Shown here piece by piece: positions 11,920 to 38,079 of a stretch of 64,000 nt of DNA (position 1 is the first letter of the stretch; each line of letters opens with the position of its first letter). Source of the DNA: Corynebacterium mastitidis DSM 44356 (GTDB lineage: Bacteria; Actinomycetota; Actinomycetes; Mycobacteriales; Mycobacteriaceae). The notes below the pieces were generated by a model that was not told the DNA's origin, ran no database searches, and worked only from the letters and a program-made list of their open reading frames with translations. The stretch spans positions 186,001 to 250,000 of the forward strand of contig NZ_AQXB01000001.1 of assembly GCF_000375365.1 (NCBI RefSeq), given 5' to 3'. Made by a program: the position numbers and the translations under genes.

Positions 11920-12669
11920 TCAACCCCTCGCGCCGCGCAGCGCCCCAAGGGCGTCGCGCAGGCTAAACGCCCCCTCGTAGAGGGCCTTGCCCACGATGGC
12001 GGAGTCGATGCCCTCCTCCTGCCCGCCGAGCCGGGAGAGCGCCTCGATGTCCGCGAGACTGGCGATCCCCCCGGAGGCGGTCACCGCCGCGTCCGTGGCG
12101 GCGGCCACCTCCAGCAGCAGGTCCAGGTTCGGGCCGTCGAGGGTGCCGTCGCGGGAGACGTCGGTGACCACCAGGCGGCGGCACCCGGCGGCGTCCAGCC
12201 GCTCCAGGACCTCCCAGAGATCGCCCGCGTCGTGCGCCCAGCCGCGCGTCTTGGCCCGCCACTCCCCCTCGACCTCCTGGGCCGCGAGGTCCACCGCGAT
12301 GAGGTCCCCGTAACGCTCCACCACGCGGGCGATCCACTCCGGGTTCTCGATCGCCGCCGTGCCGATGTTGATCCTCGAGACCCCCGTGGCCACGGCGCGC
12401 TCCAGGGAGTCCTCGTCCCTGATCCCGCCCGCAAGGTCTACCCTGACGTCCAGGGTCCCGGCGATCTCCGCGAGCGCCTCGTGGTTGCTGCCGCGCCCGA
12501 AGGCGGCGTCGATGTCCACCAGGTGAATCCACTGCGCGCCCTGCTCCTGCCAGGCCAGCGCCGCCTCCAGGGGGCTGCCGTAGGACTTCTCCGTGCCGGC
12601 CTCCCCCCGATGCAGGCGCACGGCCTTGCCGTCGGAAATGTCTACTGCGGGCAGGAGTGTGAGCGTCAT
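11920..12669 (-). CDS. hisA: 1-(5-phosphoribosyl)-5-[(5-phosphoribosylamino)methylideneamino]imidazole-4-carboxamide isomerase
   Basis: 249-residue TIM barrel for the ProFAR isomerase step. [15 protein letters not shown] carries the first catalytic Asp (D10), [14 protein letters not shown] and INIGTAAI are standard, and [15 protein letters not shown] carries the second. In some actinobacteria HisA doubles as TrpF (PriA); corynebacteria usually keep a dedicated TrpF. TACACT (12678-12683) sits 8 nt before the ATG at 12669, so a leaderless start is more likely than the GTG three codons... upstream at 12675. Confidence 0.95.
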
Positions 12670-12726
12670 AGGCACACAGTGTAGCCGCGCCCGCGGCGCA
12701 ATAGCTATCGGCGGACTGAAAGCAAT

Positions 12727-34714: not shown

Positions 34715-35695
34715 GTGCGTGTATTTTCCCTCCCGCCCCGTCCCCGGCTCCTTGCGGCCAGCCTCCTGGGGGCCTGCGCGCTCGGCCTGGCCTCCTGCTC
34801 CGCCGAGGACTCCTCCCCCACCCAGGTGGAGGCGCCCGTGGATCTCAAGGTGGACCCGGCCCGCGTGCTGCTCCAGGACCCCGGCCAGGACCCCCACCGC
34901 ACCCTGCGCTACGCCGACCGGCAGGCCGAGCAGCGGGTGACCGTGGAGATCGGCAGCGGCTTTGACCAGCAGGTCATGCGCGCCGACGCCGTGCGGACCC
35001 AGGCCCCCGAGGCCACCGACAGCGTGGGCGAGGCCTCCACCCTCACCCTGCCGCTGCGGGCGTCGAGCAGCGCCACCGACCCGGACGGGGACTCCGCCGA
35101 CGAGCGCGAGGTCACCACCGTCCTCGGCCAGCCCACCGCCGAGCCCGCGCGCGCCGAGGACCTGGAGGGGACGCGGGACTTTAAGCTCGGGTGGAGCGGG
35201 GACCACAGCGGGCGCGTATCCTCCGTGAACCTCGCCGCCCCCGCCGAGGCCAGCGACGAGGGCCGCGCGCTGGTGGAGCAGGCCCTGATGAAGCTGCTCT
35301 CCCTGCCCGTGATCTTCCCCGAGGAGCCCGTGGGCGTGGGCGCCGTGTGGAGCGTGGACTCGCGGGTGACCGGCGAGGCCACCCTGCTGCAAACCGCCAC
35401 CTACACCCTCACCGCCCTCGACGGCGACGACGTGGAGCTGGCCGTGAGCGTGCAGCAGCGCCCGGCGCAGGGCGCGCTCACCCTCGACGCCCCCGAGGAG
35501 CAGGGCACCCAGACCCTGGACGTCATGAACGCCAACACCGCCAGCTCCGGGAGCCTGCGACTCAACCTCGGGGAGCCGCTGCCGCGCGCCGGGGAGGTGG
35601 CCCTGACCACCCGCGTGGTCTACGGGCAGGACGACTCCGAGGTGCGGGTGGTGCAGGACTCCTCCACCAGGGTGGGCTTTAGCGCCGCCTCCTAG
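34715..35695 (+). CDS. secreted lipoprotein, unknown function
   Basis: 326 residues. The signal peptide has the lipobox GLASC, then an acidic, soluble domain without a recognised family (EVTTVLGQPTAEPARAEDLEG, FKLGWSGDHSGRVSSVNLAAP, LEGTRDF). The GTG at 34715 is 7 nt after TAGATT (34702-34707), so it is leaderless; an upstream extension would enter the lspA promoter. It diverges from lspA, the enzyme expected to process it. Its stop overlaps that of the convergent ATPase gene by four bases. Confidence 0.8.
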   Translation: MRVFSLPPRPRLLAASLLGACALGLASCSAEDSSPTQVEAPVDLKVDPARVLLQDPGQDPHRTLRYADRQAEQRVTVEIGSGFDQQVMRADAVRTQAPEATDSVGEASTLTLPLRASSSATDPDGDSADEREVTTVLGQPTAEPARAEDLEGTRDFKLGWSGDHSGRVSSVNLAAPAEASDEGRALVEQALMKLLSLPVIFPEEPVGVGAVWSVDSRVTGEATLLQTATYTLTALDGDDVELAVSVQQRPAQGALTLDAPEEQGTQTLDVMNANTASSGSLRLNLGEPLPRAGEVALTTRVVYGQDDSEVRVVQDSSTRVGFSAAS

Positions 35696-37218
35696 AGGAG
35701 CGTGTAGGTGGTGCCGCGCACTCCCCAGCCACCGTTGCGCCGCACCAGCCCAGCACTCATAAGTTTTTCCACGGCGTAACGGACCTGCCCCTCGGTGAGA
35801 TTCGTGCTGGCAACAAGCTGATCGAGGTCTGTCTCGGAACCATGGGCGGTAAGCGCCTTCATGATGGCGTCGCCGTTCTTTGTTACGACGCGGGCGGAGT
35901 TGTTCCGAGCGCGGAGTGGCCGCTTCTGTGGCGCCTTCTCGGTGAGTGGTAACGCTGGGGAGGCGGGACCATTCTCCTCCCCCGCTGGGGTGCCATACAT
36001 GATCGCGGTGAACTGCACGCCAGTATCAATAAGAGTCGGCTTAGGCAGACCCGCTTCACGCGCCTGAGCAAAGACCTCCTGCACCCCAGCACCCTCCCCC
36101 TCGATCACACGGCTGCCGGAAACGGAGCGAACACGCTTAGCGATGTCGTATAACCGGGGATTCACGGCGTTTTTGGCAAGAGCGGCGCTTTCTAACTGCT
36201 GTGTAGAGACCCCACGCAGCCCACCCGGGTTAGTAATAATCAGCCGGTCTCCTTTAATGCGAATCTCCACCCACTTCCCCTCGGAGTTGGGGCTAAGATC
36301 CCGGTGTACCAAGGCATTAGCGATCAACTCACGCACCGCGCCAAGGGGATAAACGCACTCCTCCACCATGTTTCCGCTGCTCACATAGCGCCCGTACCTG
36401 GGGGCGTTTTCCCCTACCCAGGCGACGGCGTCCTCCAACAGGTCCGGCAGAGGGCCATCGAAGTCTCGCCGATTACGGTTGCGTATCCCTCTTCCGTTAT
36501 GATCCGTCTGCACCGCCGCCGTAATCCGGAGTTGTGGGGCCTTAGCCTGCGGATACATACCAAGCGCGTACAACCCGGAAAGCGTTACCTCGTCGTCCCC
36601 GGTGACGATATTGAGCATCTCCAATAACGCAGAGTCGCTACCGACCCGGGAAAGGCGCTGGCTCTGAGCACGGGCGCTGCTCAAAAACTTTCCTACGGCG
36701 TCGGAATCCAGATCCTGCCGCCCGGAGTTGAACACCGGGGCAACATCAAAGCGATAGTGCTCCGAGTGTGCCAATTTTTGGATCTCAATGAGCGCAAGAT
36801 CCGAGTCATTCATGACGTAATCGCCATCGGACTGCCGCAGATAAGCTCGGTTTTTATAACGAGCAGGGCGCACGGACAGCGGCACAGAAGCGACGTGAAC
36901 CACCACCACGTCCTTGCCGTTCAGGGTAAAAACTTTCGCCTCGAGCTGCGGTGCCGGTACCACACAGGTGCGGGTTTGACTGATAACCGCATCCAGCATT
37001 GCCGGGGCATCCTCGATCCCCTCCACGGAGAAGTTATCCTCTTCCGAAATACCGAGAATAACCGTTCCCCCATCAGGCATATTCGCAAAAGCGCATATGC
37101 TTTCGGGCAGATTCTCCGGGAGACGCGAGGCACGCTTTACCTCCACCTCGGTGGTATCGCGATTGAGGTGCCGAAGTTCCGTGAGCCGCCGCTCCAGTTC
37201 CTCCAGAGTCCAAGTCAC
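35692..37218 (-). CDS. AlbA_2/Schlafen-like ATP-binding protein with C-terminal winged helix
   Basis: 508 residues. N-terminal AlbA_2 domain (~20-145: TTEVEVKRASRLPENLPESI, CAFANMPDGGTVILGISEED), a central helical region, and a GHKL-type HATPase_c_4 domain (GAVRELIANALVHRDLSPNS...LIITNPGGLRGV, ~290-345). A basic linker leads to a C-terminal winged helix (~445-505: IMKALTAHGSETDLDQLVASTNLTEGQVRYAVEKLMSAGLV). Members are usually annotated as ATP-binding transcriptional regulators or RecG-like proteins, and are often mobile. The base composition is visibly less G+C-rich than the neighbours, which suggests transfer. It has its own leaderless promoter flanked by repeats. Confidence 0.85.
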   Translation of the reverse strand: MTWTLEELERRLTELRHLNRDTTEVEVKRASRLPENLPESICAFANMPDGGTVILGISEEDNFSVEGIEDAPAMLDAVISQTRTCVVPAPQLEAKVFTLNGKDVVVVHVASVPLSVRPARYKNRAYLRQSDGDYVMNDSDLALIEIQKLAHSEHYRFDVAPVFNSGRQDLDSDAVGKFLSSARAQSQRLSRVGSDSALLEMLNIVTGDDEVTLSGLYALGMYPQAKAPQLRITAAVQTDHNGRGIRNRNRRDFDGPLPDLLEDAVAWVGENAPRYGRYVSSGNMVEECVYPLGAVRELIANALVHRDLSPNSEGKWVEIRIKGDRLIITNPGGLRGVSTQQLESAALAKNAVNPRLYDIAKRVRSVSGSRVIEGEGAGVQEVFAQAREAGLPKPTLIDTGVQFTAIMYGTPAGEENGPASPALPLTEKAPQKRPLRARNNSARVVTKNGDAIMKALTAHGSETDLDQLVASTNLTEGQVRYAVEKLMSAGLVRRNGGWGVRGTTYTLL

Positions 37219-37225
37219 ACCTCAG

Positions 37226-37254
37226 AGTGTAAAAATCCCCCGCCCAGAGTGCAA
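37226..37254 (-). promoter_or_regulatory. promoter of the AlbA_2 ATPase gene
   Basis: -35 TTGCAC (37249-37254) and -10 TACACT (37226-37231) are separated by exactly 17 nt; the GTG start at 37218 lies 7 nt further, so the mRNA is leaderless. The -35 lies inside a repeat element (37246-37266), and CAGAGTGT, a partial copy, covers the -10. This layout suggests repression, perhaps by the gene's own winged-helix domain. Confidence 0.65.
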
Positions 37255-37266
37255 CAGTGCAACTTT
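37246..37266 (+). repeat. operator-like 21-bp direct repeat, copy 1
   Basis: Reads AGAGTGCAACAGTGCAACTT plus one T. It differs at two positions from copy 2 at 37356-37376 and includes a TGCAAC motif twice. It covers the -35 region of the ATPase promoter. Confidence 0.75.
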
Positions 37267-37354
37267 GTGCGCCCCACAGTTTCACACTCTTGAAAAACCG
37301 CGCCACCAGCGCCTCTCCCCAACAGTTAGGACAAAACCAAAGCGCAGTGCCTCA

Positions 37355-37410
37355 CAGAGTCCCACAGTGCAACTTTCTCCCCGTACCCGCTGTTGCACTG
37401 TGGGACTCTG
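37355..37410. repeat. perfect 19-bp inverted repeat containing operator-like copies 2 and 3
   Basis: Left arm CAGAGTCCCACAGTGCAAC (37355-37373) is the exact reverse complement of the right arm GTTGCACTGTGGGACTCTG (37392-37410), with an 18-nt loop. The left arm plus CTTT forms direct-repeat copy 2. There is no U-tract, so it does not look like an ordinary terminator, although it lies downstream of the minus-strand lipoprotein gene. Confidence 0.85.
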
Positions 37411-37423
37411 ACTGTCTCCCCCT

Positions 37424-37438
37424 CCCCCCCCCCCCCCC
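37424..37438. repeat. homopolymer tract of 15 C
   Basis: Uninterrupted C15 on the plus strand (G15 on the minus strand), 11 nt beyond the stop codon of the lipoprotein gene at 37450. TCTCC (37415-37419) and GGAGA (37439-37443) flank it and could pair. Homopolymer length may be variable or mis-sequenced. Confidence 0.85.
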
Positions 37439-37449
37439 GGAGAACGCCC

Positions 37450-38079
37450 CTAGGGCGCGGGCGCCTCGGCGGGTGCCTCCGGGGCCGCGGGAACCGGAGC
37501 CTCGGCCGGAGCGGGCGCCGGGGCCGGGGCGTCGGCGGGCGCGGGGTCGGGAACCGGGTTCGAGGGCACCTGATCCGCGCACATCGCGGGCGCCTGGTCC
37601 GGCACCACGCGGGTCACCAGCGTGCAGGCCCAGTCCTTGGAGAGCTTCCAGGAGCCGTTCTCATACACGAAGGTCACGTTGTCCGCCATCTGCTCGGGCT
37701 CGTTCGGGCGCAGGAACTGCACGCTGGTGAGCACCTCGTTGGCCGCGTACCCGGCGAGCACCGGGTCCACCACCTGGAAGTCCGCGCCGGACTCCTCCTT
37801 GGAGCGCGCCATCACGTCGAACAGCTCGGGCGCGGTCTCCCCGCCCTGCACCGTGGCGATCTTCTCCTCGATGGGCCGGTGGGCGTCGGTGGCCACGGCG
37901 AGGACCTGGTTGAGCTCGGCGGCGGTGGGCAGGGCGGGGGCCACCTCCTGGGCCGACGTCGAGGCCGGAGTCTTCGAGGTCACCTCCGCCTTCTCGTTCC
38001 CCTCATCGCTGGAACAGGCGACCACGCCGAGGCCGAGCCCCAGGGCGATCGTGGCGGCGGCGATCTTCTGCAACTTCAC
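37450..38079 (-). CDS. secreted lipoprotein with Pro/Ala-rich C-terminus
   Basis: 209 residues. The signal peptide ends in the lipobox GVVAC (C22). A short Ser/Thr/Glu-rich spacer leads to a ~120-residue globular domain (AAELNQVLAVATDAHRPIEE, VTFVYENGSWKLSKDWACTLV) of NTF2-like or low-molecular lipoprotein type. The tail is a long Pro/Ala/Glu repeat (PAPADAPAPAPAPAEAP...), probably spanning the cell wall. GGAGGAGACACC precedes the GTG at 38079. Two Cys in the domain (WACTLV, AMCADQ) may form a disulfide. Resembles the protein at 18739. Confidence 0.8.
   Translation of the reverse strand: MKLQKIAAATIALGLGLGVVACSSDEGNEKAEVTSKTPASTSAQEVAPALPTAAELNQVLAVATDAHRPIEEKIATVQGGETAPELFDVMARSKEESGADFQVVDPVLAGYAANEVLTSVQFLRPNEPEQMADNVTFVYENGSWKLSKDWACTLVTRVVPDQAPAMCADQVPSNPVPDPAPADAPAPAPAPAEAPVPAAPEAPAEAPAP

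What the first reader, a model, noticed from the sequence alone, without database searches (positions are those of the whole stretch)
35692..37266. Possibly self-regulated AlbA_2/GHKL ATPase with less G+C-rich DNA
The 508-residue protein joins an AlbA_2 nucleic-acid-associated domain, a GHKL-type ATPase and a winged helix. It has a textbook promoter (TTGCAC-17-TACACT) with a leaderless GTG. A 21-bp repeat covers the -35 and a partial copy the -10. The composition differs from neighbours, suggesting horizontal transfer. AlbA_2 proteins occur in defence-related and stress-related loci, so this solitary gene may be a regulator or a defence component with its own operator set.
Basis: partly seen in the sequence, partly recalled or inferred. 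Interest (0 to 1): 0.6.

Follow-up and report, generated by a model that had tools for sequence, protein, structure and literature searches.

The report
Self-regulated bacterial Schlafen gene, horizontally acquired
A lone, acquired bacterial gene for a Schlafen-type (possibly antiviral) protein appears to carry its own on/off switch built into its promoter, and many of its relatives are bracketed by matching repeats, as if gene and switch move as one small unit.

Summary
The gene at 35692-37218(-) is real: 508 aa, SLFN/AlbA_2 + GHKL-type ATPase + C-terminal winged helix. That is the architecture a 2026 paper calls a Schlafen RNase fused to a minimal histidine kinase and wHTH. It is acquired: none of 19 assessable relatives has it at this conserved site, and its GC3 is 0.67 against 0.89-0.97 for seven neighbours. 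It looks autoregulated. Six TTRCACTST-type half-sites lie upstream; two coincide with the -35 and -10 hexamers of an apparently leaderless promoter. The paired arrangement has one exact hit in its genome, here, and recurs within one base of the same position in Arcanobacterium. Beyond the finding: 17 of 46 family genes are bracketed by direct repeats carrying such arrays, against 4 of 309 control ORFs and 0 of 18 other cargo ORFs. One occupied/empty pair shows a 7-bp flanking duplication. Two genomes with no family match hold a single repeat. The window copy has only its 5' arrays. Binding, repression and RNase or defence activity are inferred. The protein kind is known; I found no description of the operator-bracketed arrangement.

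The parts
35692..37218 (-). AlbA_2/GHKL/wHTH gene, 508 aa, GTG start; its TAG overlaps the TAG of the convergent lipoprotein gene (CTAG)
36811..37155 (-). SLFN_AlbA_2 domain (residues 22-136)
   Evidence: Pfam E 3.2e-16
35998..36279 (-). HATPase_c_4 / GHKL-type domain (residues 314-407)
   Evidence: Pfam E 9.5e-19
35734..35868 (-). winged helix (residues 451-495)
   Evidence: Pfam HTH_IclR E 7.4e-4, below cut-off; helices and hairpin in the model
37226..37231 (-). -10-like TACACT, inside half-site TTACACTCT 37224-37232
   Evidence: within one base of the same position in L031 and L032
37249..37254 (-). -35-like TTGCAC, inside half-site TTGCACTCT 37246-37254
   Evidence: within one base of the same position in L031 and L032
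37245..37263 (-). 19-mer operator copy 1 (half-sites TTGCACTGT and TTGCACTCT)
37282..37290 (+). half-site with one mismatch, inverted relative to the gene
37355..37373 (-). 19-mer operator copy 2, one arm of a perfect inverted repeat
37392..37410 (+). 19-mer operator copy 3, other arm of the inverted repeat
34721..35695 (+). conserved lipoprotein gene (lipo1), left flank of the insertion; start chosen by me
37450..38079 (-). conserved lipoprotein gene (lipo2), right flank of the insertion; start chosen by me

Best explanation
A horizontally acquired, solitary bacterial Schlafen-type gene that represses itself. Shown by sequence: the domain architecture; insertion between two conserved convergent genes; clustered half-sites that coincide with the -35 and -10 of an apparently leaderless promoter; their conserved placement in the closest homologues; one exact paired site in the genome, at this promoter. 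Inferred: the protein, through its winged helix (perhaps as an ATP-controlled dimer), binds the half-sites and occludes RNA polymerase. When infection- or damage-derived nucleotides or nucleic acids engage the GHKL and AlbA_2 parts, it releases the operator, its level rises, and the AlbA_2 domain acts as a Schlafen-like RNase that halts growth or phage replication. Many family members keep gene and operator arrays together as a DR-gene-DR unit; the window copy keeps only the 5' arrays.
For: Pfam domains. AF2 model, pLDDT 81, matches 3LMM DIP2311 (Foldseek E 1.9e-21) and weakly the SAMD9 tRNase domain 9o0d (rank 31, E 0.017). D21 nearly invariant; E26, K28 and E59 invariant in 14 of 14 sequences. 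Half-site counts reach the floor of the shuffle test (P 0.0033) in 7 of 23 loci, one of them the window itself, from which the motif was taken. Half-sites at -36/-14 in the window and -35/-13 in L031 and L032, hexamers 17 bp apart in both. Paired half-sites: 1 exact hit in G000. Gene absent at this site in 19 of 19 assessable relatives. Schlafen RNase-minimal histidine kinase-wHTH proteins closely linked to BREX-type loci in at least 1017 taxa (PMC12839542, passages). Homologues beside type I RM, TIR/type ISP, RhuM and Wadjet jetA genes. Purifying selection between two Arcanobacterium copies, dN 0.028 / dS 0.186.
Against: No binding, expression or activity data. 13 of 23 loci have P > 0.05 for this half-site; more distant homologues have other motifs. 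The promoter scan finds nothing, and a 150-bp self-repeat test was not significant for the window (P 0.39). A second paired-site hit at 3 mismatches lies elsewhere on the contig, as often as the reversed-pattern control. The AF2 pTM is only 0.52. Equivalence to SLFN13's catalytic residues rests on spacing, not on an alignment made here. The defence-neighbour tally has no matched control, and I identified no defence gene beside the window gene.
Confidence: 0.6

Rival explanations
1. Pure transcription regulator: AlbA_2 only senses or binds nucleic acid, and the protein controls other genes as well as itself; there is no RNase effector.
For: Wadjet jetA overlaps the stop of the homologue in L040, a regulator-like position; the neighbouring paralogue in G031 matches Pfam 'Transcriptional regulator DIP2311-like'.
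Against: In G000 the 19-mer has three exact copies, all here, and one further hit at 3 mismatches; the paired half-sites have one other hit outside this array, at 3 mismatches, equal to the reversed-pattern control. Acidic residues D21, E26 and E59 are conserved.
Confidence: 0.3
2. The operator arrays and direct repeats mark a one-gene mobile element: DR-gene-DR inserts between genes, and recombination between the DRs removes the gene leaving one DR. The window copy is an element that lost its 3' DR.
For: 17 of 46 genes bracketed vs 4 of 309 control ORFs and 0 of 18 other cargo ORFs; ACTTCGC on both sides in G016 and once in empty G002; single repeat in G011 at the G016 site and a single array of the G000-contig-3 type in G006; neither genome has a family match at E <= 0.001.
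Against: No recombinase identified; one flanking duplication seen, 7 bp; 29 of 46 genes lack long DRs, the window's included; class-wide 4 of 30; the close pair G020/G021 shows a deletion that keeps part of the gene; it is not known that G006's array ever flanked a gene.
Confidence: 0.35
3. Chance repeats or terminator palindromes left by the insertion, without regulatory meaning.
For: The gene lies between convergent genes, where terminators are expected; a terminator-like hairpin at 37312-37300, though such sites are as frequent in shuffles (2 found, 1.7 expected).
Against: Shuffle controls; matching promoter-relative positions in another genus.
Confidence: 0.05

Closest known systems
Bacterial Schlafen RNase - minimal histidine kinase - wHTH proteins (PMC12839542, passages seen; it cites the preprint Taboada et al. 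[quoted passage not shown]
   Same: Same three-part architecture; defence context in several relatives
   Different: I identified no defence locus beside the window gene; the passages I saw do not mention self-operators or flanking repeats (I did not read the whole text)
DIP2311 of C. diphtheriae (PDB 3LMM; Pfam DIP2311-like_C)
   Same: Best structural match over most of the protein
   Different: 16-19% identity; the DIP2311-like_C and DUF5635 domains match the G031 paralogue but not the window protein
WYL-type regulators of defence islands such as BrxR/CapW (recalled; PMC9122601 seen as a listing with the start of its abstract)
   Same: wHTH self-regulator associated with defence (recalled)
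   Different: Sensor here is GHKL + AlbA_2, not WYL
RAYT/REP genes and solo LTRs (recalled analogies)
   Same: Single gene flanked by its own repeats; single repeats left behind
   Different: No transposase or reverse transcriptase domain in the protein; repeats differ by subfamily, and the window's 19-mer is not dispersed in its genome

Membership tests
Bacterial Schlafen-minimal histidine kinase-wHTH | SLFN/AlbA_2 domain | tested here: met
   PF04326 60.4 bits, cut-off 25.3
Bacterial Schlafen-minimal histidine kinase-wHTH | GHKL-type ATPase domain after it | tested here: met
   PF13749 67.6 bits, cut-off 26; N301, H305, R306 and PGGL 331-334 invariant in 14 sequences
Bacterial Schlafen-minimal histidine kinase-wHTH | C-terminal winged helix | tested here: met
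   Below the Pfam cut-off by sequence; present in the AF2 model, and Foldseek matches include wHTH chains at E about 0.01
Bacterial Schlafen-minimal histidine kinase-wHTH | Catalytic carboxylate triad as in SLFN13 (E205, E210, D248; passages of PMC5862951) | tested here: inconclusive
   D21/E26 have the same 5-residue spacing and E59 follows; conserved, but no residue-level superposition was made
Bacterial Schlafen-minimal histidine kinase-wHTH | RNase activity and anti-phage effect | not testable with these tools
   Needs protein and phage assays
Autoregulated repressor | Conserved operator-like sites overlapping its own promoter | tested here: met
Autoregulated repressor | Binding and repression | not testable with these tools
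   Gel shift and reporter needed
DR-bracketed single-gene element | Matching direct repeats on both sides | tested here: not met
   Met in 17 of 46 genes, but not in the window copy (score 24, control mean 22.8)
DR-bracketed single-gene element | Empty site in relatives | tested here: met
   Window site: 9 of the 18 relatives with both flanks have a lipo1-lipo2 gap under 500 bp, 9 carry other cargo

The most novel reading that the evidence does not exclude
Bacterial Schlafen-type genes form single-gene mobile elements whose terminal repeats serve both as the protein's operator and as its recombination or integration site, so that the AlbA_2-GHKL-wHTH protein itself controls or promotes its own excision and insertion.
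Probability: 0.2. Interest if true: 0.85.

Novelty: new variant of a known kind. Interest (0 to 1): 0.56.

Why it matters
Bacterial Schlafens are just being recognised as likely phage-defence proteins. A conserved operator built into the promoter would give a direct assay for what switches them on. If gene plus operator arrays also move as one repeat-bounded unit, that would explain how lone defence genes spread without an integrase.

Tried and rejected
Plasmids: 6 records matched, phages: 16, all below 60% identity; viral contigs: none by close-relative search, so no sign of plasmid or phage carriage of close homologues in those collections. PADLOC's pAgo hit spans the AlbA_2 and ATPase region (residues 23-407); I do not take it as an Argonaute. 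G020/G021 proposed as an empty-site pair: G020 keeps about 500 bp of the gene, a deletion, so not used. G004/G005: no match beyond the flank. L020's flank was not found in G021 or G004. Palindromes at tgt-yhhQ in G032 first looked like a single DR; not significantly similar to the two family DRs tried (P 0.24 and 0.10), and the self-palindrome score (43) was within the shuffles (max 46), so dropped. First self-repeat test on 150 bp: the window was not significant (P 0.39). 'A partner gene under the 3' array' was not supported for L069 and L033, where the ORF lists show no co-directional ORF of 100 aa or more before convergent genes; it is open for L031 and L032, where a small ORF follows. Rows left out: one search used 23 loci (L006 and L042 as near-duplicates, and L012 for its unclear start, were left out); one search used 46 genes, those at hand with flanks, not every hit (for instance the G012 gene of L100 was not counted). 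In one search three of 30 ORFs (L129, L138, L139) were read by my script on the strand opposite to the listed match, so that sample is effectively 27. The defence-neighbour scan has no matched control.

Full report
What is there. The gene at 35692-37218(-) encodes 508 aa with SLFN_AlbA_2, HATPase_c_4 and a weak C-terminal winged helix. An AF2 model from the window protein plus 13 homologues has mean pLDDT 81 and pTM 0.52. Its best solved relative is DIP2311 of Corynebacterium diphtheriae (3LMM, four chains, best Foldseek E 1.9e-21), then 2KYY over the N-terminal domain; the SAMD9 tRNase domain is at rank 31 with a weak E of 0.017. Across the 14 sequences E26, K28 and E59 are invariant and D21 nearly so. 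SLFN13's catalytic residues are E205, E210 and D248 (PMC5862951, passages). The matching 5-residue spacing is my inference; no superposition was made.

Acquisition. The order rluD-lspA-lipoprotein 1-[site]-lipoprotein 2-asparaginase-dinB is conserved. Of 20 relatives fetched at rluD, none has the gene there; one (L053) ends at a contig end before the site, so 19 are assessable, and one (L064) lacks a lipoprotein 2 hit. Of the 18 with both flanks, 9 have gaps of 33-462 bp and 9 carry other cargo of 1 kb or more, five of them an ABC-F-like gene by my reading of the sequence. GC3 of the gene is 0.668 against 0.89-0.97 in seven neighbours. Homologues are scattered: 31 of 60 relatives have a match at E <= 0.001, 11 of them at E below 1e-89.

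Own operator. GTTGCACTGTNGSACTCTG occurs three times upstream and nowhere else in the window, with up to 3 mismatches allowed. In the looser form searched genome-wide (GTTGCACTGTNGNACTCTG) the genome holds the same three exact copies and one copy with 3 mismatches. It decomposes into TTRCACTST half-sites: six within 200 bp of the start, five exact. Two contain the -35-like TTGCAC and the -10-like TACACT, 17 bp apart, with the GTG 7 nt further. In two Arcanobacterium species the same half-sites sit at -35 and -13, the same hexamers 17 bp apart, with ATG 6 nt further; the Trueperella and G031 homologues have half-sites close to the start too, but not this exact promoter. Of 23 loci tested, 7 (the window included) reach the floor of the shuffle test (P 0.0033), three more have P < 0.05 and 13 do not; more distant homologues have their own motifs. 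In 738 control windows of the same loci, 8 had three or more hits; some of these are probably the 3' arrays seen. The paired arrangement has one exact hit in the genome, at this promoter, one at 2 mismatches in the same array, and one elsewhere at 3 mismatches (window 12654-12684); the reversed-pattern control gives one. The hexamers match the sigma-70 consensus poorly and a promoter scan finds nothing. Autoregulation is therefore well supported by sequence but not shown.

In many relatives sequence of the 5' array reappears at the 3' end of the gene. Local alignment of the 5' and 3' flanks gives a direct repeat of score 40 or more in 17 of 46 genes, against 4 of 309 control ORFs, all four in locus L038 (Fisher 1.7e-13). 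Thirteen score 60 or more: 49-335 bp, 81-100% identical. Other genes inserted at the same hotspots show none: 0 of 18 ORFs (Fisher 0.0015). The 46 include near-duplicates (L072/L073, L031/L032, L041/L042), so the P values are optimistic. Within what I take as Corynebacterium the count is 14 of 32 of those 46; in a class-wide sample of 30 loci from 394 genomes it is 4, one of them the window genome's own paralogue, with three of the 30 read on the wrong strand by my script. The window copy has none: its stop codon overlaps that of lipoprotein 1, and its best flank alignment is at control level.

Movement. At rmlCD-rmlA, G002 is empty (TAG CTAG ACTTCGC ATTCA ATG) while G016, with 95% identical RmlA, carries the gene with ACTTCGC on both sides. 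G011 has no family match but a single repeat at the same place that aligns with the G016 5' repeat over 66 columns (score 53; 500 shuffles at most 21). G006, also without a family match, holds a single array resembling that of G000 contig 3 (E 3e-4); whether it ever flanked a gene is unknown. Against this: one flanking duplication only, no recombinase, and a close pair (G020/G021) differing by a deletion that keeps part of the gene. In G000 contig 3 the repeat includes the end of the upstream host gene, which fits recombination between repeats as well as insertion.

Function. [quoted passage not shown] Neighbours of homologues include a type I restriction subunit (G031), TIR and type ISP proteins (A. 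pluranimalium), RhuM (Trueperella), Wadjet JetA overlapping the homologue's stop (Granulicoccus), a mad3-like protein in L035 and a PDC-S62 match in L036. These are 6 of 20 loci, those whose hits I traced to a locus; 123 of 124 listed neighbour ORFs were scanned in bulk, without a matched control. Phage homologues (Eviarto gp38, Squirty gp31) lie near the integrase and repressor genes, Squirty's close to a RelA/SpoT-like gene; an inverted repeat (16-nt arms) overlaps Squirty's start codon, and neither phage gene has long flanking direct repeats.

Literature. Searches for AlbA_2, COG2865, HATPase_c_4, GHKL, Schlafen, AAA-4, autoregulation and direct repeats listed no paper that, by title or start of abstract, describes self-operators or flanking repeats for this family. 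Most listings were capped (for instance 20 of 747), and most subscription papers and preprints are not in that library.

Verdict. A new member of a known protein kind with a testable regulatory anatomy, in a family whose genes are often single and repeat-bracketed.

Noticed in passing
37424-37438: A run of 15 C on the + strand between the operator arrays and the lipoprotein 2 stop codon, the only run of 8 or more C or G in the window; a slippage-prone tract or an assembly artefact.
   Followed up: no
L081 7531-7667 and 9215-9351 (G000 contig 3): The same genome has a second AlbA_2/GHKL gene flanked by a 137-bp direct repeat (98% identical) that includes the 3' end of the upstream host gene.
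   Followed up: partly
L040 3962-7164: In Granulicoccus the AlbA_2 gene overlaps Wadjet jetA, suggesting a regulator in a defence operon.
   Followed up: partly
L069 656-11245 (G031 contig 9): Type I restriction genes followed by two different AlbA_2/GHKL genes in a row.
   Followed up: partly
L049, L051, L052, L060, L068 between lipoprotein 1 and 2: The window's insertion site is a hotspot: five relatives carry an ABC-F-like gene there and four others other cargo.
   Followed up: partly
L108 645-962 (G032 tgt-yhhQ): Two copies of CCTATACATTGCCCAATGTATAGG in an otherwise empty hotspot; not significantly similar to the family repeats tried.
   Followed up: yes
G000:C8:110224-110568: A truncated AlbA_2/GHKL frame of 213 aa, possibly a decayed third copy.
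   Followed up: no
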